NCBI RefSeq assembly: GCF_001570585.1
Contig: NZ_BBXF01000004.1
Location: forward strand, 248,001-312,000
Reading direction: 5' to 3'
Source: Herbidospora daliensis
GTDB lineage: Bacteria > Actinomycetota > Actinomycetes > Streptosporangiales > Streptosporangiaceae
Length of the DNA stretch: 64,000 nucleotides
In this document: positions 45,630 through 56,030 of the stretch, in pieces
Numbering within the stretch: position 1 is the first letter of the stretch
Layout: each line of letters opens with the position of its first letter
Program-made: the position numbers and the translations under genes
Notes under the pieces: model-generated
What the model was told of the DNA's origin: nothing
Seen by the model: only the letters and a program-made list of their open reading frames with translations
The model's database searches: none

Positions 45630-46826
45630 ATGAAGATCGCCATGATCTCGGAGCACGCCAGCCCGCTCGCCTGCGTCGGCACCACCGACGCCGGAGGCCA
45701 GAACGTCCACGTCGACGCCCTGGCCAGGGCGGTCGCGGCACTGGGTCACGAGGTCGTCGTCTACACCCGGCGCGACGACGAGACGGTGCCCGAGAGGGTG
45801 CGGATCGCGCCGCGCGTCACGGTCGTCCACGTGCCCGCCGGACCGGCGCGGAAGATCCCGAAGGACGACATCCTCCCGTGGGTGCCGCACTTCGCGAAGT
45901 GGTTGCGGGAACAGTGGTTGTTCGACCGGCCCGACGTGGTGCACAGCCACTTCTGGATGAGCGGCCTGGCCGCCCTCGGCGCCGCCCGCGAGCTGGGCGT
46001 CCCGGTCGTGCACACCTACCACGCGCTCGGCTCGGTCAAGCGCCGCCACCAGGGCGCCGAGGACACCAGCCCGGCCGAGCGGATCGCGGCCGAGACCCGG
46101 ATCGGCAACGAGGCCGACGCCATCGTCGCGACCTGCACCGACGAGGTCGACGAACTGCGCCGGATGGGCGTGGCCCGCCGGCAGGCCCGGGTCGTGCCCT
46201 GCGGGGTCGACCTGGCCCGGTTCAACCCGCACGTCGCGGCGCCGCCCACGGCCCGGCCCCGGCTGGTGTCGATCAGCCGCCTGGTGCCGCGCAAGGGCGT
46301 GGCGACGATCATCGAGGCGCTGCGCGGGATCAAGGGCGTCGAGCTGGTGGTGGCCGGCGGGCCGCCGGCCAACGCGCTGCACCACGACCCCGAGGTGACC
46401 CGGCTGCGCTGGCTGGCCCAGCGCAACGGGGTGGCCGACCGGGTGACCTTCACCGGCCAGGTCGCCCGCCAGCACGTGCCCGCGCTGCTGCGCTCGGCCG
46501 CCGCCGTCGTCACGGTGCCCTGGTACGAGCCCTTCGGCATGGTCGCGCTGGAGGCGATGGCCTGCGGCGTGCCGGTGGTCGCCTCGTGCGTGGGCGGCCA
46601 GAAGGAGACCGTGGTCAACGGCATCACCGGCGTGCTGGTGCCGCCGCAGCGGCCCAACGCGCTGGCCAGGGCGGTGCAGCGGCTGCTGGCCGACCCGGTG
46701 CGGATGACCGCGTTCGGCATCGCCGGGGCCGACCGGGCCCGGGCGCGTTACGGCTGGAACAGGATCGCGATGGAGACGGTCGCTGCCTATCGAGAGGTCG
46801 GCGTCCGGTTGGAGGCGACCGCATGA
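45630..46826 (+). CDS. Glycosyltransferase family 4
   Basis: A 398-residue GT-B enzyme. The N-terminal domain has the loop GTTDAGGQNVHVDALARAVA, the catalytic-region HSHFWMSG and a sugar-nucleotide site ending EPFGMVALEAMACGVPVV (EX7E). It transfers a sugar from a nucleotide donor with retention. GGAGGTAA lies just before the ATG. It overlaps the following GT9 gene by 4 bp and starts a sugar-transfer cluster with two GT9 enzymes and an HldE-like protein. Confidence 0.92.
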   Translation: MKIAMISEHASPLACVGTTDAGGQNVHVDALARAVAALGHEVVVYTRRDDETVPERVRIAPRVTVVHVPAGPARKIPKDDILPWVPHFAKWLREQWLFDRPDVVHSHFWMSGLAALGAARELGVPVVHTYHALGSVKRRHQGAEDTSPAERIAAETRIGNEADAIVATCTDEVDELRRMGVARRQARVVPCGVDLARFNPHVAAPPTARPRLVSISRLVPRKGVATIIEALRGIKGVELVVAGGPPANALHHDPEVTRLRWLAQRNGVADRVTFTGQVARQHVPALLRSAAAVVTVPWYEPFGMVALEAMACGVPVVASCVGGQKETVVNGITGVLVPPQRPNALARAVQRLLADPVRMTAFGIAGADRARARYGWNRIAMETVAAYREVGVRLEATA

Positions 46827-47746
46827 CGACCGCACTCGTGCTGCGCGCGCAGGGCATCGGCCATCTGCTGACGGCCGTGCCGGCTCTGCGCGCCCTGCGC
46901 CGCAGTGGCATCAGGATCGCCCTGGCCTGCCCGCCGGAGCTGAGCGAGCTGGCCGCCCTCACCGGGGTGGTCGACCGGCTCATCCCGGCGTACGGCCTGG
47001 AGCCGATCATGTGGCCGGGGCTCACCGACCGCAACTCCGACCTGCCCTTCTTCCCCGAGATCGCGGTGAACCTGCACGGCCGGGGGCCGCGCTCCACGGA
47101 GCTGCTGGCCGACCTGCGGCCCCGGAGGTTGTGGGCGTACGCGGAGGAGGCCTATCCCCCGGGCCCGAAGTGGGACGACGACGAGCACGAGACCCGGCGG
47201 TGGTGCCGCCTGGTCGAGTGGTACGGGCTGAAGGCCGACCCCCGCGACCTGCTGCTGCCCCCGCCGATGATGCCGAGCCCGGCGCCCGGCGCGGTGGTGA
47301 TCCACCCGGGCGGGACCGGCCTGTCGCGGCGCTGGCCGGCCGAGCGGTTCGGCGAGGTCGCGCGGGCGCTGGCCGGGGAGGACCTGCCGGTCGTGGTGAC
47401 CGGGTCGCGCAAGGAGCGCCCGCTGGCGCTGCTGGTGGCGACCCAGGCGGTGCTGCCGCCGCAGATCGTGCTGGCGGGCCGGACCTCGCTCCGCGAGCTC
47501 TGCGCGGTCGTGGCCGGGGCCCGGCTGGTGATCAGCTCCGACACCGGGGTGTCCCAGCTGGCGACGGCCTACGGCACCCCGTCGGTGACGATCTTCGGCC
47601 CGGAGCGCCCCGAGCGGTGGGGCCCGCCCCGGGAACGCCCCCGCCACCAGGCCCTCCGGAACGGGGCCGACCCCGCGAGCGTGACCACCGCCGAGGTGCT
47701 GACGGCCGCCTCGGCGGTGCTCAGCGACGGCCTGGTCAGGCGCTGA
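46823..47746 (+). CDS. Glycosyltransferase family 9 (heptosyltransferase-like), first
   Basis: A 307-residue GT-B enzyme of the ADP-heptose:LPS heptosyltransferase family (LRAQGIGHLLTAVPALRAL, VIHPGGTGLSRRWPAERF, VISSDTGVSQLATAYGTPSV). Actinomycetes have no LPS, so the acceptor is another surface or secreted glycan. ATGA-coupled to the GT4 gene; its end overlaps the convergent second GT9 by 11 bp. Confidence 0.88.
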   Translation: MTTALVLRAQGIGHLLTAVPALRALRRSGIRIALACPPELSELAALTGVVDRLIPAYGLEPIMWPGLTDRNSDLPFFPEIAVNLHGRGPRSTELLADLRPRRLWAYAEEAYPPGPKWDDDEHETRRWCRLVEWYGLKADPRDLLLPPPMMPSPAPGAVVIHPGGTGLSRRWPAERFGEVARALAGEDLPVVVTGSRKERPLALLVATQAVLPPQIVLAGRTSLRELCAVVAGARLVISSDTGVSQLATAYGTPSVTIFGPERPERWGPPRERPRHQALRNGADPASVTTAEVLTAASAVLSDGLVRR

Positions 47747-48743
47747 GCAGTTCGTCGGCCTGGGCGGCCACCGCCTCGGCGCCCACGTCGGTCAGCCACG
47801 ACACCGGGTGGTCGCAGCCGCCCGGTTCGCGCAGGCCCGCGCCGCCGCAGGTCGGGCAGTGCGTCGTCCACGAGATGAGGGGGCGGTGGTGGCTGCGGGT
47901 GAGGGGGCCCGCGTTGATCAGGTCGCCGCACCAGTAGACGCCGACGGTCGGGGTGCCGGTCGCGGCGGCCAGCCTCCGGGGGCCGCTGTCGTTGGCGATC
48001 ACCACGTCGCAGGCGGTGTAGAGGGCGGCCAGGCCGCCCGCCGAGAGCGCCCCGACGACCGGGATCGACCTCGGGATCAGCGCCGCGACCTTCTCCACCA
48101 GATCGCGTTCGTGCTCCCCGCCGGTCACCGCGACCGGCCGCCCCAGACGGGCGGCGGCCTCGGCGAAACAGGCGGCCGGCCAGCGGCGGCGGGCGTCGCG
48201 GCCGCCCGGATGCACGGCGATCAGGCCGCGCGGCAGCTCGCCCAGGACTGATCGCAGCTCGGCGTAGTCGTCACGGGTCACCTGCATGCGCGGTTCGACG
48301 TTCTCGGAGCTCGCGCCCACCAGGCCCGCCACCTCCAGGAACCGCAAAGTCTCGTGCTGGTAGGGGACGTAGGGGACCCAGCGGTCGAGCGGCTGGGCGT
48401 CGTCGCCGCGCAGGCCGGCCGTCACGCGGGCGCCCAGGCCGTTGACGAAGGCGTTGGCGTAGTGGCCGTCGCCATGCATCTGGAGTGCCAGGTCGAAGCG
48501 CCCGACGAGGTCGGGCGGCGCGTCCGGCGACTGCTCCATCGGAGGCACCGGCACGACGTCGTCGACCGGGCCGGGACGTCCGCGCAGGAACGGCACCTGC
48601 CACTCGCGGCCGAGCAGAGTGATTCTGGCGGCCGGATAGGCACGGCGCAGCGCCTCCATGGCTGGGAGGATCAGCAGCAGGTCACCCAGGGCCGTCGCCC
48701 GCAGAACGGCGATCCGCTCGACGCTCTCGACGATGAGGTTCAT
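47736..48743 (-). CDS. Glycosyltransferase family 9 (heptosyltransferase-like), second
   Basis: A 335-residue GT9 enzyme (VLRATALGDLLLILPAMEAL, IAVHPGGRDARRRWP, VIANDSGPRRLAAATGTPTV). The C-terminal part has WTTHCPTCGG, a Cys pair reminiscent of a small metal site seen in some actinomycete GT9s. It is convergent with the first GT9 and divergent from the HldE-like gene. Confidence 0.88.
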   Translation of the reverse strand: MNLIVESVERIAVLRATALGDLLLILPAMEALRRAYPAARITLLGREWQVPFLRGRPGPVDDVVPVPPMEQSPDAPPDLVGRFDLALQMHGDGHYANAFVNGLGARVTAGLRGDDAQPLDRWVPYVPYQHETLRFLEVAGLVGASSENVEPRMQVTRDDYAELRSVLGELPRGLIAVHPGGRDARRRWPAACFAEAAARLGRPVAVTGGEHERDLVEKVAALIPRSIPVVGALSAGGLAALYTACDVVIANDSGPRRLAAATGTPTVGVYWCGDLINAGPLTRSHHRPLISWTTHCPTCGGAGLREPGGCDHPVSWLTDVGAEAVAAQADELLSA

Positions 48744-48800
48744 CGCAGGACCTTCGATCGGTTCGGTTTCGGTACCCCGGCCCGGTTACCCGAGGGGTCC

Positions 48801-50156
48801 ATGAGCAAACACGCTGCGGTTTTCCCGGCACGCCCCCGGGCAGCAGGGATGCCCATGACGGAAGAGACAGTGCGCCGCTTCCCCGGCCTCACGGCCGTGG
48901 TCGTCGGGGACGTGATGCTCGACTCGTGGCTCCAGGGCCAGGCCAGCCGGATGGCGCAGGAGGCGCCGGTCCCGGTGGTCAGCGTCGAGCAGATCGCGGA
49001 CGCCCCCGGCGGCGCCGCCAACACCGCCGCCAATCTCGCCGCGCTGGGTGCCCGCGTGCACCTGCTCGGCGTCGCCGGCGCCGACCCTGCCGGGACGGCG
49101 CTTATCGGAGCCCTCCTCCGCCACGAGGTGGACGGGCCCATCGTCACCCGCAGCCGCCGGACCGCCGTGAAGCGGCGGGTCATGTCGGGCGGGCAGATCG
49201 TGGCACGGTACGACGAGGAGGACCGTTCCCCCATCCCGGCCGCGGTCGAGCGCGAGCTGGTCGCCCAGATCGGCGAGCTCGCCGACGTGGCCCACGTGGT
49301 CATCGTCTGCGACTCCGGCGCGGGCGTCTGCACCGACGAGGTCCGCCAGGCCCTCTCGGGGCTGCCGATGCTGGTCGTGGACGCCTACGACCCCGAACTC
49401 TGGCGCGACGCCGAACCGGCCGCCGTGCTGGCCAGGTACGACGCCTGCGACCTCGTCCCGGACGACTGCGCGCCCATAGTGGTCACCGACGAGGGCGACG
49501 GCGCGGTCGTCCACCGCGACGGCCGCCCGGCCTACCGGACCCGGCCCGGCTCCGGCGACCTCGTGGGCGCCGGGGCCGGCGACACCTTCACGGCGGTCTT
49601 CGCGCTGGCCCTGGCCGCCGGGGCCGACCCGGCCACCGCCGCCGACCTGGCCCAGGCGGGCGCCGACGTCGTCTCCCGCCGCCCCGGCACGGCGGTCTGC
49701 GACGCGGCCGACCTGCTCGCCGAGCTGGGCCCGCGCCCGGCCATGCCGGCCAAGGTGCTGGCCGAGCGGGTCGCCGCCGAACGGGAGCAGGGCCGCCGCA
49801 TCGTCTTCACCGACGGCTGCTTCGACGTCCTGCAGCCCGGCCACGTGACCTGCCTGGAGCAGGCGCGCCGGTTCGGCGACGTGCTGGTCGTGGGGGTGCG
49901 CGACGACCAGAGCGCCGCCCGCAGGAAGGCCCCCGACCGGGTGGTCAACACCGCCGAGGACCGGGCGGCCGTGCTGGCCGGGCTGGGCTCGGTCGACTAC
50001 ATCACGCTGCTCGAGGACGACACCCCGGCGTCTCTGCTGAAGCTCATCCGCCCCGACGTCTACGTCAAGGGCGGCGGCGGCCATCCCGACCTGCTGCCGG
50101 AGGCCCGCCTGGTGCGGGAGCTCGGCGGCGAGGTCCGCGTCGTCGAAAGGCGATAG
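48801..50156 (+). CDS. hldE: HldE-like bifunctional heptose-phosphate kinase / adenylyltransferase
   Basis: A 451-residue fusion. The PfkB-type kinase (about 30-320) has PGGAANTAANLAALGA and VGAGAGDTF; the adenylyltransferase (about 330-451) starts FTDGCFDVLQPGHVTCL. In other organisms these make ADP-heptose from heptose-7-phosphate. Two departures stand out: the kinase segment between DAYDPELW and VVTDEGDG is about 25 residues shorter than E. coli HldE and lacks the usual TPN-E motif, and the first His of the transferase HxGH signature is Gln (QPGH). GmhA and GmhB homologues are not in view. Later ATGs at 48849 and 48855 are possible starts. Confidence 0.82.
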   Translation: MSKHAAVFPARPRAAGMPMTEETVRRFPGLTAVVVGDVMLDSWLQGQASRMAQEAPVPVVSVEQIADAPGGAANTAANLAALGARVHLLGVAGADPAGTALIGALLRHEVDGPIVTRSRRTAVKRRVMSGGQIVARYDEEDRSPIPAAVERELVAQIGELADVAHVVIVCDSGAGVCTDEVRQALSGLPMLVVDAYDPELWRDAEPAAVLARYDACDLVPDDCAPIVVTDEGDGAVVHRDGRPAYRTRPGSGDLVGAGAGDTFTAVFALALAAGADPATAADLAQAGADVVSRRPGTAVCDAADLLAELGPRPAMPAKVLAERVAAEREQGRRIVFTDGCFDVLQPGHVTCLEQARRFGDVLVVGVRDDQSAARRKAPDRVVNTAEDRAAVLAGLGSVDYITLLEDDTPASLLKLIRPDVYVKGGGGHPDLLPEARLVRELGGEVRVVERR

Positions 50157-51039: not shown

Positions 51040-51185
51040 GCGTCCCATGGTCGGCGCGCTCGTCTCAGGAGGCCCTCGGCCACACGCGGGCTTGACGAGG
51101 CGTTTGACCCCAGGTGCTTGATCCACTACGGAGAGTGAGGAATGGTGAGCACGCTTTGACCGACCCTCTCCGAAGGAAACCCACC

Positions 51186-51692
51186 ATGACGATCATTCGC
51201 CGCACGCTGTCGGCCGCCGTCCTCGCCACCACCATCGGCGCGGGCCTGGCTCTGCCGGCCGCGGCCTCGGTCCGGGCCGCGAGCCCCGTCTGCGTCGACA
51301 CGACCAACAGCAGGGCGAACAACACCGAGGTCCGCCTGTGGGCGTGCCTCGACCACCCCAACCAGAAGTTCGTGATCGACGCCGGTCAGATCAAGGTCAA
51401 GGACACCATCGGCACCGCCCGTGAAGTGTGCCTCGACACCACCAACAGCCGCGCCAACAACACCAAGGTCCGCCTCTGGACCTGCCTCGACCACCCCAAC
51501 CAGAAGTTCGTGATCGACGCCGGTCAGATCAAGGTCAAGGACACCATCGGCACCGCCCGCGAGGTCTGCCTCGACACCACCAACAGCCGCGCCAACAACA
51601 CCAAGGTCCGCCTCTGGACCTGCCTCGACCACGTGAACCAGAAGTTCGTCGTGGACGCCGGCCAGATCCAGGTCAAGGACACCCTGTCCTAG
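51186..51692 (+). CDS. Secreted three-fold symmetric ricin B-type beta-trefoil protein
   Basis: A 168-residue secreted protein. The signal peptide ends near residue 31; three 46-residue units begin at Val35, Val81 and Val127, each VCLDTTNSRANNTKVRLWTC-type followed by a NQKF turn that stands in for the ricin QxW motif. Each unit has two Cys that can pair within the lobe. The whole mature protein is the trefoil and nothing else. Ricin-type trefoils bind galactose-like or other sugars. Units 2 and 3 are nearly identical. Carbohydrate binding is inferred; no enzyme domain is attached. Confidence 0.85.
   Translation: MTIIRRTLSAAVLATTIGAGLALPAAASVRAASPVCVDTTNSRANNTEVRLWACLDHPNQKFVIDAGQIKVKDTIGTAREVCLDTTNSRANNTKVRLWTCLDHPNQKFVIDAGQIKVKDTIGTAREVCLDTTNSRANNTKVRLWTCLDHVNQKFVVDAGQIQVKDTLS
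51288..51689 (+). repeat. 138-bp tandem repeat encoding the trefoil lobes
   Basis: Three in-frame copies starting at 51288, 51426 and 51564; the third is cut four codons short by the stop. The second and third copies differ at only a few positions, and long runs match at the DNA level, pointing to recent duplication or ongoing gene conversion. Confidence 0.9.
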
Positions 51693-51704
51693 CAGACAGT
51701 CGAA

Positions 51705-51734
51705 GGCCGTGACCACGTCGTCGTGGTCACGGCC
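51705..51734. terminator. Bidirectional terminator
   Basis: A perfect 13-bp stem (GGCCGTGACCACG with CGTGGTCACGGCC), loop TCGT, between convergent genes. Confidence 0.9.
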
Positions 51735-51746
51735 CTCGAACGCGGC

Positions 51747-52010
51747 TCAGATGGGGTCGTTGTAGCGGCGCTCCTCGTAGACGCGACGCTGGGTGGTGTG
51801 CACGTCGTCGACGGGGGCCACCGGGGTGACGACGGTGGAGGCTCGGCGGACGGCGCTCAGCCGGTAGAGGCCGAACAGCAGCCCCGCCAGGCCGCCCACC
51901 ATGAGAATGACCCCGATGACCTGGATGTCGAGGCCCGCGAGGGTGAAGTCGACCGCCCAGGTGAGAATGGCGCCCAACATGATCAGGATGATGCTTCCGG
52001 CGATGGTCAT
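51747..52010 (-). CDS. DUF6458-like small membrane protein
   Basis: An 87-residue protein with two membrane helices (GSIILIMLGAILTWAV, IGVILMVGGLAGLLFGLY) and a cytoplasmic tail rich in Arg, Val and Tyr (VYEERRYNDPI). This short type is common in actinomycetes and has no known function. Confidence 0.8.
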   Translation of the reverse strand: MTIAGSIILIMLGAILTWAVDFTLAGLDIQVIGVILMVGGLAGLLFGLYRLSAVRRASTVVTPVAPVDDVHTTQRRVYEERRYNDPI

Positions 52011-52611: not shown

Positions 52612-53652
52612 TCAGTCGACGGCGCAGGTCCGGTATCCGCGGCTCACCGTCGTGACGACGCCGTCGACGCCGACCACTTCCAGACGCCACGAGGCCGAGT
52701 CGCCCAACCTCGAACCGACCACCTTGTGCACGGGCGCGCGGCCGCCCGCCGGGGAGGTGATCATGACGTTCTTCCACGGCTCACGCACCCACACGGCGTC
52801 CTCGGTGAAGCGGGACCAGGCGTAGGTGAGCTGTCCGGAGGTGTTGCTCTCGGCGTAGCCCTCCAACCGGTAGGTGAACGGCGTCCACGGAGCGCACGTG
52901 CCGGCGGTGCGGGTCAGGGAGGCGAAGTCGGCGCCGATGCGGTGGTCGCCTGCGCACGTCGTGCGGTAGGCCCCCCAGTCCACCGCGTCGGCGTGGGTCT
53001 CGGGGCCGACGATCCGCACCGAGATCCAGTCGGCCCCCAGCGGATTGGCGACCGGCAGGCGATGGAAGGGAGTGCTCACGCTCTTGGTGCCCGGTTCGGC
53101 GAAGACCACCTCGTGCACCCCTTGGGCGCCCCGCAGGTCCGTGCCGTCGGTGGTGATCCACCGGTAGCGGACGGTCTGCGCGATCGGCGAGGTGATCCGC
53201 GCGGTGGCCGTGTGCACGACGCCGGCTCCGCAGGGGCCGAGGTGCTCGGCCGCCGGCTGGATCTCCGGCGCGTGCGGCATGGGCTCGTCGCAGGCCAGGG
53301 TGTACGCGACGGTCGCCGTGCCGCCGATGCCGACCAGGCGGATGGTCGTGGACGTCGGCCCGTTCCCCCAGTGGTGCGTCTTCGTGGTGGTCACGGTCGC
53401 CGATCCGGCCTCGGCGAAGACCACCTGCTCGACGCGGCCGGTGCCCCACTGGTAGGCGACGGTGCGGGGGCCGTCGACCGTGATCGTGGCGCTGAGGATG
53501 ATGCGCGCCGGCTCGGGATGGCAGGAGCCGGTGTGCGAGGGGGGTTGCGCTCCCACGGCCGCCACCGTGGCGTTCGGGGTCTCCGCCTGAGCGGGCGGCG
53601 CGCCGGCCAGTATCACGGCCGTCAGCGACACCAGGACACTCCATAACCGCAT
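52612..53652 (-). CDS. Secreted protein of three Ig-like repeats
   Basis: A 346-residue protein with a signal peptide ending AQAE near residue 24, then three related beta-sandwich units of about 100 residues. Each starts with a Cys (GSCHPEPARIILS, GPCGAGVVHTAT, GTCAPWTPFTYR) and ends with one (LACDEP, TTCAGD, RTCAVD), a likely conserved disulfide. No catalytic site or cell-wall anchor is seen. Possibly an adhesion or matrix protein. Confidence 0.72.
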   Translation of the reverse strand: MRLWSVLVSLTAVILAGAPPAQAETPNATVAAVGAQPPSHTGSCHPEPARIILSATITVDGPRTVAYQWGTGRVEQVVFAEAGSATVTTTKTHHWGNGPTSTTIRLVGIGGTATVAYTLACDEPMPHAPEIQPAAEHLGPCGAGVVHTATARITSPIAQTVRYRWITTDGTDLRGAQGVHEVVFAEPGTKSVSTPFHRLPVANPLGADWISVRIVGPETHADAVDWGAYRTTCAGDHRIGADFASLTRTAGTCAPWTPFTYRLEGYAESNTSGQLTYAWSRFTEDAVWVREPWKNVMITSPAGGRAPVHKVVGSRLGDSASWRLEVVGVDGVVTTVSRGYRTCAVD

Positions 53653-53739
53653 GTCTCGTCCTTCCGGGAGGGATCGAGATCATCCTGCGGAGGCCGGCTT
53701 GCGGCGCGATGGTGGATGGGTTGGAGCTCGGAGCCGTGC

Positions 53740-54354: not shown

Positions 54355-54470
54355 GTTATAACGACCAGGGGGTTCTATCCGAATCGTCACATGTAACGTC
54401 CTTGCCAATCCATTTACTGACGGATGGGGCGCGAGTGACGTCCCACGGCAGAGCAAGGGAGACCCCCGCA

Positions 54471-56030
54471 GTGCAGCGCACCCTCCTCATCGGCAGCACC
54501 TTCGCCGGATCCATCGGACTGCTGGCCGCCGCGCTGGTCGCGAGCCCCGCCGCAGCCGCCCCCCAGTACATCGAGAAGGAGGTGCTGGCCGGTTCCAGCG
54601 AGGCGCAGGCCATCGCCTACTTCTGGGACAAGGCGCAGCTCCAGGACGCGACCCCCTACAACGTCGAGACGACGGTCGCGGCCAAGCACATCTCCACGGG
54701 CGGCCCCACCGCCGACACCAAGGCGGGCACCGTGCCCGCGATCGGCGACGAGAAGAAGTCGACCTCCACCTCGAAGAACGTGAACCTGCCGCGCACGAGC
54801 GGCAAGGTCTTCTTCATGGGCGCCGACGGCAAGCCCCACTGGTGCTCGGGCACCTCGCTCCAGTCGAAGTACCGCAACCTCGTGGCCACCGCCGGCCAGT
54901 GCGTCTACGACACCGAGAGCAACAAGCCCGTCCTGAACAACTGGGTCTTCGTGCCCGGCTACTACCAGGGCAAGACCCCCTGGGGCATCTACGTCGGCAA
55001 GACCGCCTACACCCACTACGACTACGACGTCTACGAGGACGGCGACCGCAACTACGCGTTCGTCACCGTCTACAACGGCGTCAAGCTCACGGGTGACAAG
55101 GAGGTGGACAAAAAGGCCTATGACGCGTGGAAAGGCCAGAAGAAGATCCTCTCCGAGGTCGTCACCAAGGAGGAGTTCGAGGCCAAGTACACCGAGGGCG
55201 GCCCCTACTGGAAGAAGACCCTCGCGCCCGTGACCTCCCCGGTCGACCCGCCGAAGGCGTCGTTCACCCAGGCCGAGGCCGAGAAGTACTACACCGACGG
55301 CGTCGACGGCGTGAAGCTGACCACCGAATCGGTCAGCCCGGCCGCCTACGCCGCCGCCCCCACCGGCACCAACGCCATGAAGAACGGCGAGAAGTGCCCG
55401 ACCTGGTGCGGGCCGGATTCCGGCAAGGAATACCCGATCGACGAGGCGACCTACAACAAGCTGAAGGCCGACCCCAACTTCAAGGGCGTGCTGCGCAAGA
55501 CCGAGCAGAACCAGTTCTTCAAGAAGGAATGGTTCGTGAAGAAGTGGGTCAAGACCTCGGTGGCCGAGGCCTACTTCAAGGACCACTACATCGTCCGCGG
55601 CGTCGAGAACGTCGGCCGTCTCGGCGACAACGTCGGCGGCCAGGGCCTGGCCTACAACCAGAAGCTCGGCAAGGCCCACTACGTCTTCGGCTACCCGAGC
55701 GGCGCCCACCCCGACGGCAACCGCGTCTTCTCCGGCAACACCCTCAAGTGGTCGTACGGCAAGACCTTCGCCGCGTCGGCGTCGGCGATCAAGGCCCAGG
55801 AACTCGTCGGCATCAAGTCGTCGTTCACCGGCCAGGGCGCCATCGGCTCCTCGTGGCTGGCGGGCTACAAGAACACCCGCCGCCTCGGCTACCTGAACGG
55901 CGTGACCATCGCGGTCTCCGACCGTGACGGCAACAAGCGCATCGACACCTCCGTCTCGGCCTACTTCGACGGCGAGACCTACGGCGTCTACAAGCAGGCG
56001 GCCAACGTCTGGTCGGGCTCGATCCTGTAG
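54471..56030 (+). CDS. Secreted trypsin-fold protein with all catalytic residues replaced
   Basis: A 519-residue secreted protein starting at the GTG at 54471 behind AAGGGAGA. The signal peptide ends near AAAAP. It shares the scaffold of actinomycete chymotrypsin-like proteases: CSGTSLQSKYRNLVATAGQC (His position is Gln), NWVFVPGYYQG, NYAFVTV (Asp position Asn or lost), GGQGLAYN, FGYPSG and TGQGAIGSSWLAGY where GGSSGGPWLAGF is expected (Ser becomes Ile). The family Cys before SG is Phe. About 150 extra residues, rich in Lys, Glu and Tyr, sit between strands (around 215-365). It is a pseudoenzyme; a binding or inhibitor role is inferred. Confidence 0.8.
   Translation: MQRTLLIGSTFAGSIGLLAAALVASPAAAAPQYIEKEVLAGSSEAQAIAYFWDKAQLQDATPYNVETTVAAKHISTGGPTADTKAGTVPAIGDEKKSTSTSKNVNLPRTSGKVFFMGADGKPHWCSGTSLQSKYRNLVATAGQCVYDTESNKPVLNNWVFVPGYYQGKTPWGIYVGKTAYTHYDYDVYEDGDRNYAFVTVYNGVKLTGDKEVDKKAYDAWKGQKKILSEVVTKEEFEAKYTEGGPYWKKTLAPVTSPVDPPKASFTQAEAEKYYTDGVDGVKLTTESVSPAAYAAAPTGTNAMKNGEKCPTWCGPDSGKEYPIDEATYNKLKADPNFKGVLRKTEQNQFFKKEWFVKKWVKTSVAEAYFKDHYIVRGVENVGRLGDNVGGQGLAYNQKLGKAHYVFGYPSGAHPDGNRVFSGNTLKWSYGKTFAASASAIKAQELVGIKSSFTGQGAIGSSWLAGYKNTRRLGYLNGVTIAVSDRDGNKRIDTSVSAYFDGETYGVYKQAANVWSGSIL

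What the first reader, a model, noticed from the sequence alone, without database searches (positions are those of the whole stretch)
51186..51692. Near-perfect three-fold symmetric secreted beta-trefoil
Seen: the mature protein is almost only three 46-residue units, with units 2 and 3 differing at few positions and long DNA identity between them. Known: ricin-type trefoils usually have diverged lobes and are appended to enzymes. Inference: a recently amplified, stand-alone, possibly trivalent lectin, a natural counterpart of idealised symmetric trefoils.
Basis: partly seen in the sequence, partly recalled or inferred. Interest (0 to 1): 0.7.

Follow-up and report, generated by a model that had tools for sequence, protein, structure and literature searches.

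The report
Natural near-perfect three-fold symmetric lectin
A soil actinomycete encodes a small, probably secreted and sugar-binding protein made of three almost identical 46-residue pieces, and comparison with relatives suggests that such pieces stay alike less because the triplication is recent than because they overwrite one another.

Summary
Observation confirmed. Window 51186-51692 (+) encodes 168 residues: a signal-like leader and units of 46, 46 and 42. In 34 of 40 compared positions all three units agree; pairs share 86-93% of nucleotides. By homology it is a ricin-type beta-trefoil (PF00652, E 3e-22; profile against 1knl, E 1.5e-15). AlphaFold failed twice (pLDDT 42), so the fold rests on sequence. 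'Recently amplified' is not supported for the array: five of six other genomes of the genus carry the gene, four at the same locus, and 53 family genes, the window's included, were found in two families. Across 17 symmetric genes, units agree far better within a gene than the same unit does between genes, also at synonymous sites; AU tests reject descent by position. Within Herbidospora alone exchange is only partial. The window's middle unit is a clean mosaic of its neighbours. Together this indicates concerted evolution. One relative (L026) has 40 of 40 positions alike, against 26 of 47 in the template of the designed ThreeFoil (PMC5517649). Three of 53 genes have two units, one intact (L037). 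New variant of a known kind; ligand, valency and role are inferred.

The parts
51172..51177 (+). ribosome-binding-like GAAGGA, 8 bases before the ATG
   Evidence: read by eye
51186..51692 (+). CDS, 168 aa, secreted-looking ricin-type beta-trefoil lectin-like protein
51186..51284 (+). signal-peptide-like leader (RR, hydrophobic core, Ala-rich end); exact cleavage site not predicted
   Evidence: sequence inspection; no signal-peptide program was run
51288..51425 (+). unit 1 (46 aa)
51426..51563 (+). unit 2 (46 aa): 5' part like unit 3, 3' part like unit 1; switch within 51483-51506
51564..51689 (+). unit 3 (42 aa, ends at the stop codon)
51345..51421 (+). 77-nt run of unit 1 identical to unit 2 (51483-51559)
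51429..51506 (+). 78-nt run of unit 2 identical to unit 3 (51567-51644)
51700..51739 (+). strong hairpin after the stop codon, terminator-like, between convergent genes
   Evidence: -41.6 kcal/mol for 51687-51760, z -4.8

Best explanation
A secreted, single-domain R-type (ricin-B/CBM13-like) beta-trefoil in which each 46-residue unit is one trefoil lobe. Each lobe most likely keeps a sugar pocket (Asp of C-x-D, Trp of x-W-x-C, Asn-Gln of NQx[FW]) and a lobe disulphide, so the closed domain would offer three equivalent weak sites and bind repetitive glycans by avidity, as actinohivin and CBM13 do. In the symmetric branch of the family the lobes are held alike by concerted evolution: slipped pairing or unequal crossing-over (or gene conversion) between the 138-bp units copies one lobe over another, and the need to close a three-lobed fold filters the products so that nearly all genes keep three units. 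Shown: sequence, homology, unit exchange in the family. Inferred: fold closure, three working sites, the exchange mechanism, and the role (most likely glycan binding on biomass or on neighbouring cells).
For: Homology: PF00652 E 3e-22; 1knl CBM13 E 1.8e-11 with the single sequence and 1.5e-15 with a 29-row profile over positions 3-124. In those 29 rows (of 53 family genes) both Cys, D, W and N of every unit are invariant; Q is invariant in units 2 and 3 and >=90% in unit 1. Exchange: 17 symmetric genes have within-gene pS 0.126/pN 0.046 (51 pairs) against 0.322/0.260 for the same position between genes (408) and 0.327/0.264 for different positions (816), i.e. no memory of position. AU tests reject units-by-position in the diverse symmetric set (dlnL 627, p 8.9e-6), in five genes of the family of G623 (p 9.4e-6) and in Herbidospora (p 4.6e-5); units-by-gene is not rejected in the first two (p 0.063, 0.52). 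Window mosaic: nine u2=u3 sites, then eight u1=u2 sites; pooled polarity over the 17 genes p 1e-4, synonymous sites only p 0.0076. Units: 50 of 53 genes have three, 3 have two, none four or more (five loci settled by eye).
Against: No model supports the fold: pLDDT 41.5 and 42.0, best Foldseek E 0.48 and 1.1; NQxF replaces QxW here. Within Herbidospora the synonymous signal is weak: mean within-gene pS is 0.206 (u1-u2), 0.109 (u2-u3) and 0.193 (u1-u3) against 0.171, 0.206 and 0.167 between species, so only u2-u3 is clearly below; units-by-gene is also rejected (p 0.023). States private to one species and shared by u2 and u3: one in L011, six in L013, none in the other four, the window's included. 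The polarity signal comes mainly from L001, L013, L025 and L053; L023 is reversed, L009, L012 and L039 lean the other way, L022 is neutral, three genes are uninformative. The sets were chosen after seeing the sequences. 24 of 41 tabulated three-unit genes have diverged lobes, so the family does not need symmetry; in long-chain relatives some pocket positions are lost (L058, L060). Repeated independent triplication is not excluded outside Herbidospora. Sugar binding was not tested.
Confidence: 0.64

Rival explanations
1. Recent triplication, or in a weaker form one single homogenising event near the base of the genus, after which the units simply drifted.
For: High identity between units; the single-breakpoint mosaic is also what one duplication inside a two-unit gene would leave. 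In Herbidospora unit divergence within genes is about as large as between species.
Against: Four congeners carry the gene at the same place and a fifth elsewhere or on diverged flanks, and both families sampled have three-unit genes, so the array is not new in this strain. A single event followed by drift predicts units-by-position within the genus, which is rejected (p 4.6e-5), and leaves the other genera unexplained.
Confidence: 0.12
2. No exchange: selection for equal lobes (symmetric ligand, folding) keeps independently evolving units alike.
For: Core and site residues are conserved in symmetric and asymmetric members. Lobe ends that are free in the fold (5' part of unit 1, 3' part of unit 3) differ most in the window.
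Against: Synonymous sites are homogenised too across the 17 genes (pS 0.126 against 0.322). Residues peculiar to one gene recur in all three of its units (e.g. L024, L026, L039). Asymmetric sister genes show that lobes may diverge. Codon bias was not corrected for.
Confidence: 0.07
3. Assembly artefact: short reads collapsed or copied the repeats.
For: Some relatives bear N: L032/L018 inside the repeats (3 N), L061/L021 in and near them (79 and 110 N in the locus). The window lies in an 18-contig draft.
Against: Separate assemblies of five congeners give a three-unit gene, and the window's units are told apart at 18 sites. L023, L066 and L068 lie in contigs of 10.3, 8.5 and 9.8 Mb and have three units.
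Confidence: 0.04
4. Same fold, other job: an inhibitor, a surface-coat protein, or a lectin part of a larger particle, not a free trivalent lectin.
For: Beta-trefoils serve many roles (PMC7734218, passages). Ricin_B domains occur in some UmbA proteins of umbrella toxins (PMC11062931, passages). Six relatives in the family of G623 carry the domain at the end of a longer chain (L055, L057-L060, L062).
Against: No second domain was found in the window protein: other Pfam matches above cut-off overlap the units (RicinB_lectin_2; Cry1Ac_D5 at 26.8 against 25 bits, residues 39-77). UmbA proteins have an N-terminal trypsin-like domain (PMC11062931, passages), absent here. Pocket positions are kept in all units.
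Confidence: 0.13

Closest known systems
CBM13 / ricin-B lectin domain (PF00652; 1knl, domain of a Streptomyces xylanase)
   Same: Three lobes in register over nearly the whole domain, with the C-x-D, W-x-C or Y-x-C, and NQ positions.
   Different: Ordinary domains of this genome have lobe pairs alike at 33-69% and mostly lie in longer open frames; here the lobes are 85-93% alike, the protein stands alone, and NQxF replaces QxW.
Actinohivin (actinomycete anti-HIV lectin; PMC3498932, abstract and passages)
   Same: Actinomycete trefoil made of three tandem repeats, one pocket with an Asp per repeat, trivalent.
   Different: No chain of that name among the 10 matches or the 31. One disulphide, in the second module only (PMC3498932), against a Cys pair in every unit here. 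Unit exchange in actinohivin was not examined.
ThreeFoil (designed; PMC5517649 and PMC7734218, passages; original paper not held)
   Same: Perfect three-fold repeat of a ricin-family lobe of about 47 residues with a site in each.
   Different: Designed, from a natural template with 26 of 47 positions alike in all lobes. The natural proteins here reach 34/40 (window), 40/42 (L051, L054) and 40/40 (L026).
Symfoil and its one- and two-lobe forms (PMC7734218, PMC9062101, passages)
   Same: The two-lobe gene L037 is a natural analogue of the two-lobe construct, which forms a trimer holding two trefoils.
   Different: Symfoil is artificial, derived from FGF-1 and without its natural function; folding of L037 is untested. 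Truncated ThreeFoil did not fold (PMC7734218).
MytiLec-1 / Mitsuba-1 (PMC5517649, passages)
   Same: Trefoil lectin with a site in each lobe.
   Different: MytiLec-1 has 16 residues preserved in all lobes, other motifs (HxDxH, HPxGG), and is a mussel dimer; Mitsuba-1 is designed.

Membership tests
Ricin_B_lectin / CBM13 beta-trefoil | profile match over the domain | tested here: met
   PF00652 79.6 bits against cut-off 29; 1knl across the three lobes
Ricin_B_lectin / CBM13 beta-trefoil | three homologous lobes, each with two Cys | tested here: met
   C5/C23, C51/C69, C97/C115 invariant in 29 of 29 rows
Ricin_B_lectin / CBM13 beta-trefoil | Gln-x-aromatic (QxW, or QxF/QxY as counted in PMC11212257) in each lobe | tested here: met
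   QxF in 3 of 3 units of the window; strict QxW in 0 of 3. PMC11212257 (passages) gives 0-6 strict QxW per CBM13 module, so QxW is usual, not required
Ricin_B_lectin / CBM13 beta-trefoil | beta-trefoil fold | tested here: inconclusive
   AlphaFold pLDDT 41.5 and 42.0, no trefoil among listed PDB matches; the single-sequence model has 12 strands, four per unit, at low confidence
Ricin_B_lectin / CBM13 beta-trefoil | carbohydrate binding | not testable with these tools
   only conservation of pocket positions; their role is recalled from ricin and CBM13 work
Actinohivin-like lectin | sequence kinship to actinohivin | tested here: not met
   no actinohivin chain among matches (E<=1; E<=0.01)
UmbA (umbrella toxin) | N-terminal trypsin-like domain before the lectin | tested here: not met
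   the chain after the leader is the lectin domain only; definition from PMC11062931 passages
Concerted-evolution repeat array | units more alike within a gene than the same unit between species, synonymous sites included | tested here: met
   met over the 17 symmetric genes and in the family-of-G623 set; within Herbidospora alone only for u2-u3

The most novel reading that the evidence does not exclude
A natural protein fold kept in its 'newborn' symmetric state by continuing intragenic exchange: genes cycle between three and two lobes and back, the middle lobe being rebuilt as a hybrid of its neighbours each time, and the two-lobe state (L037) survives because the chain trimerises into two domain-swapped trefoils. 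That would be living evidence for the 'conserved architecture' route of trefoil origin, which the passages I saw support with designed proteins only.
Probability: 0.2. Interest if true: 0.82.

Novelty: new variant of a known kind. Interest (0 to 1): 0.58.

Why it matters
[quoted passage not shown] PMC5517649, passages). Here is a natural family with members from 34/40 (window) to 40/40 (L026), next to sister genes whose middle lobe has diverged and a few genes with two lobes. That makes the question of how trefoils arise from one lobe testable with natural proteins, and offers multivalent lectin scaffolds. It also shows that high internal symmetry need not mean recent origin. In the held library one paper holds both 'beta-trefoil' and 'concerted evolution', and there the second term is a reference title on another subject. 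A broader search (15 of 296 papers listed) listed one trefoil paper, the Mitsuba design paper, with no occurrence of 'concerted evolution'; others (12 of 116 listed; 12 of 26 listed) showed no title or abstract start on unit exchange in trefoils. Most subscription papers are not in that library.

Tried and rejected
Fold prediction: a seven-row alignment (window, L014-L017, L019, L020) gave pLDDT 41.5, the single sequence 42.0; Foldseek against the PDB gave nothing usable. I take these as failures of the method on a shallow alignment and count them neither for nor against the fold.

More rows for that alignment: three scans of viral contigs found no relative. Phage records: no match. Plasmid records: 20 with a match, best identity 51.9%; one region viewed; not used in the tests.

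Rejected as main reading: recent triplication, assembly duplication, pure selection for equal lobes (see rivals). Neighbourhood gave no function: flanking genes look unrelated.

The two-unit form of Streptosporangium minutum (L032 = L018) is not counted as sure, because it has N inside its second unit. L063 has two units and a broken frame in the first; it was only described.

Rows dropped: one search used 41 of 44 genes as trios (L032 and L058 left out, L037 added as a pair); one search used 36 genes; one search used 37 (17 + 20) of the 41 tabulated, leaving out the four long-chain genes L055, L057, L059, L062; the loci L060, L061, L063 and L065-L070 entered the unit count only.

Full report
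WHAT IS THERE. The ORF at 51186-51692 (+) encodes 168 residues. After a leader that looks like a signal peptide (inspection only; no predictor was run) come three tandem units of 46, 46 and 42 residues; the DNA repeats have a period of 138 nt. Over the 40 positions compared, 37 (u1-u2), 37 (u2-u3), 34 (u1-u3) and 34 (all three) are identical; nucleotide identity is 0.92, 0.93 and 0.86. A strong hairpin follows the stop codon (51700-51739). The genome is held as 8.52 Mb in 18 contigs; the nearest named relatives are four Herbidospora species.

FOLD. Pfam Ricin_B_lectin matches at E 3e-22; RicinB_lectin_2 and, just above its cut-off, Cry1Ac_D5 (26.8 against 25 bits) match overlapping stretches; NCBIfam lectin models match below their cut-offs. 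A single-sequence search of the PDB finds the CBM13 of a Streptomyces xylanase (1knl) at E 1.8e-11 over residues 33-154; a profile of 29 family members finds it at 1.5e-15 over positions 3-124 of 138. Two AlphaFold runs failed (mean pLDDT 41.5 with seven rows, 42.0 with one), and Foldseek listed no trefoil (38 of 38 matches shown, 50 of 186). The trefoil is therefore concluded from homology, not from a model. The single-sequence model has 12 strands, four per unit, which fits a trefoil but carries little weight at that confidence.

POCKETS. In the 29-row alignment (29 of the 53 family genes) both Cys, the Asp of C-x-D, the Trp of x-W-x-C and the Asn of NQ are invariant in all three units; the Gln is invariant in units 2 and 3 and kept in at least 90% in unit 1. 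That these are the pocket residues is recalled from ricin and CBM13 work, not tested. Some long-chain relatives outside that alignment have lost such positions (L058, L060). The classical QxW reads QxF in the window.

HOW OLD IS THE ARRAY. Six of seven genomes of the genus, own included, have the gene. Four named Herbidospora loci are collinear with the window on both sides (L014-L017). The fifth congener (L013) matches only across the gene in the 3.5 kb held. In the family 36 of 297 genomes, and in the family of G623 13 of 394, carry a relative at E<=1e-18; in a class-wide draw 8 of 394 at E<=1e-15, one of which (L047) is an ordinary ricin-type domain. Presence is patchy: 7 of 16, 2 of 8 and 1 of 50 genomes in three genera. 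The family of G623 includes proteins identical to those of Kitasatospora sp. CB01950 and Streptomyces sp. MJM8645. together gave 53 genes, the window's included. A loose motif count finds three units in 48, two in 3, one in 2. Reading those five by eye: L023 has three (NL for NQ in unit 1); L061 shows the starts of three, interrupted by N; L032 and L037 have two; L063 has two with a broken frame in the first. That makes 50 with three, 3 with two, none with four or more. In six genes (L055, L057-L060, L062) the domain ends a longer protein.

TWO KINDS OF RELATIVE. Internal identity was tabulated for 41 three-unit genes. Seventeen are symmetric: six of the genus from 27/40 to 35/40, the other eleven from 31/38 (L025) and 34/42 (L053) up to 40/42 (L051, L054) and 40/40 (L026; its units still differ at three nucleotide sites). 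The other 24 have more diverged lobes, 9/40 to 29/41, mostly through a distinct middle unit. The split was made by eye from the middle unit, so L028 (29/41) sits with the asymmetric set. Control: six of seven ordinary ricin-type domains of the same genome could be split into lobes; pairs agree at 33-69% over 29-42 positions, third lobes being cut by the match ends.

UNITS OVERWRITE ONE ANOTHER. In the 17 symmetric genes, units within a gene differ at pS 0.126 and pN 0.046 (51 pairs). The same position between genes differs at 0.322 and 0.260 (408 pairs), and different positions between genes at 0.327 and 0.264 (816 pairs): no memory of position. In 20 asymmetric genes the figures are 0.269/0.266, 0.237/0.182 and 0.296/0.304: clear memory of position. 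By group: five genes of the family of G623 have within-gene pS 0.10, 0.09, 0.13 against 0.33, 0.27, 0.24 between genes; six diverse symmetric genes 0.09, 0.08, 0.12 against 0.35, 0.30, 0.29. In Herbidospora the contrast is weak: 0.206 (u1-u2), 0.109 (u2-u3), 0.193 (u1-u3) within, 0.171, 0.206, 0.167 between. Codon bias was not corrected for.

TREE TESTS on 132 nt. In a diverse symmetric set of seven genes, grouping units by position is rejected (dlnL 627, AU p 8.9e-6) and grouping by gene is not (p 0.063). In five genes of the family of G623 grouping by gene equals the best tree and by position is rejected (p 9.4e-6). In six Herbidospora genes both are rejected (p 4.6e-5 by position, 0.023 by gene), so exchange there is partial. 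In eight asymmetric genes grouping by gene is rejected (p 8.3e-30) and by position more mildly (p 0.005; SH test 0.3). The sets were picked after seeing the sequences, and mosaic units break the assumption of one tree, so the p values are guides. Free trees of 41 genes plus L037 give gene-wise trios as clades in 8 of 41 genes on DNA and 4 of 41 on protein; on DNA 52 of 125 units have a nearest neighbour in their own gene, 68 in the same position of another gene (most genes in it are asymmetric).

THE MOSAIC. In the window, from unit position 7 on, every informative site up to 57 has u2=u3 and every one from 82 to 118 has u1=u2: nine then eight (site 3 is u1=u3). If the 17 sites were independent this order would have a chance of about 1 in 24,000; some are neighbours in a codon, so the true figure is weaker. 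Over the 17 symmetric genes the same polarity holds with permutation p 1e-4, and p 0.0076 on synonymous sites alone. It comes mainly from L001, L013, L025 and L053; L023 runs the other way, L009, L012 and L039 lean the other way, L022 is neutral, and L024, L052 and L056 are uninformative. A middle unit with the 5' end of its right neighbour and the 3' end of its left neighbour is what unequal crossing-over or slippage makes when a two-unit array gains a unit. It would also arise if array ends are simply exchanged less often. The data do not separate these. In Herbidospora, states private to one species and shared by u2 and u3 number one in L011 and six in L013 (two of the six also in u1), none in the other four.

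TWO-UNIT GENES. L037 (re-fetched with flanks as L064) lies in a 4.9-Mb contig, the stretch has no N, and its two units differ from each other. Both its 5' part and its 3' end with some downstream sequence match the three-unit gene L023 of the same genus. L032 (= L018, Streptosporangium minutum M26) has N inside its second unit, so a collapsed assembly is likely. L063 has a broken frame. Passages of PMC7734218 and PMC9062101 report that the two-lobe form of the designed Symfoil makes a trimer holding two trefoils, while truncated ThreeFoil did not fold; what L037 does is open.

WHAT IT DOES. The best-supported reading is a secreted, stand-alone glycan-binding protein with up to three like sites, working by avidity. 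Shown: sequence, kinship, conservation of pocket positions, unit exchange in the family. Inferred: three working sites, ligand, and role outside the cell. The neighbourhood does not help: a secreted-looking protein without a Pfam match, DUF6458, a shikimate-kinase-family protein, and upstream glycosyltransferases.

COMPARISON. Against CBM13 it is a member by profile, with QxF in place of QxW. Against actinohivin it works alike in outline (three repeats, three pockets; PMC3498932, abstract and passages) but no actinohivin chain was matched at the thresholds used. Against ThreeFoil it is the natural counterpart, more symmetric than the template from which ThreeFoil was made (26 of 47; PMC5517649, passages). 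Passages of PMC9062101 cite Broom and co-workers for the view that trefoils keep arising anew; the original paper was not seen. The present family shows another way to stay symmetric: not only new birth but continued exchange.

VERDICT. Observation confirmed; 'recently amplified' replaced by concerted evolution in the symmetric branch, partial in the window's own genus; fold by homology; function inferred. New variant of a known kind.

Noticed in passing
window 45630-50156: A family-4 glycosyltransferase, two family-9 (heptosyltransferase-type) genes and a PfkB+cytidylyltransferase protein lie together, an arrangement like ADP-heptose synthesis and, to my recollection, unusual in an actinomycete.
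   Followed up: partly
window 52628-53729: A stretch holding the gene 52612-53652 (-), which has only a sub-threshold PKD_4 match in Pfam and none in NCBIfam, is missing in three Herbidospora loci that span the place (L014, L016, L017).
   Followed up: partly
L015:4517-6011 and L017:1032-3152: In H. galbida about 1.5 kb lies between the lectin gene and the next matching stretch, and in H. solisilvae about 2.1 kb before it, without a match to the window: the flanks seem prone to insertions.
   Followed up: no
window 54402-56030: A 542-aa secreted-looking protein without a Pfam or NCBIfam family at its cut-off has a stretch reminiscent of trypsin-like proteases with the His position changed (by eye).
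   Followed up: no
L063 (G233:C48): A two-unit relative whose first unit is cut by a frame break; pseudogene or sequencing error.
   Followed up: partly
L036 and L070 (same genome, G263): Two copies on different contigs (9.0 and 0.9 Mb) encode what reads as the same protein, suggesting recent duplication or transfer between replicons.
   Followed up: no
H1-H10 (plasmids), e.g. NZ_CP108284.1:180762-181283: Ten Streptomyces plasmid records hold a match 49-52% identical to the window protein; the one viewed, a linear 898-kb plasmid, has it as a 522-bp gene annotated RICIN domain-containing protein.
   Followed up: partly
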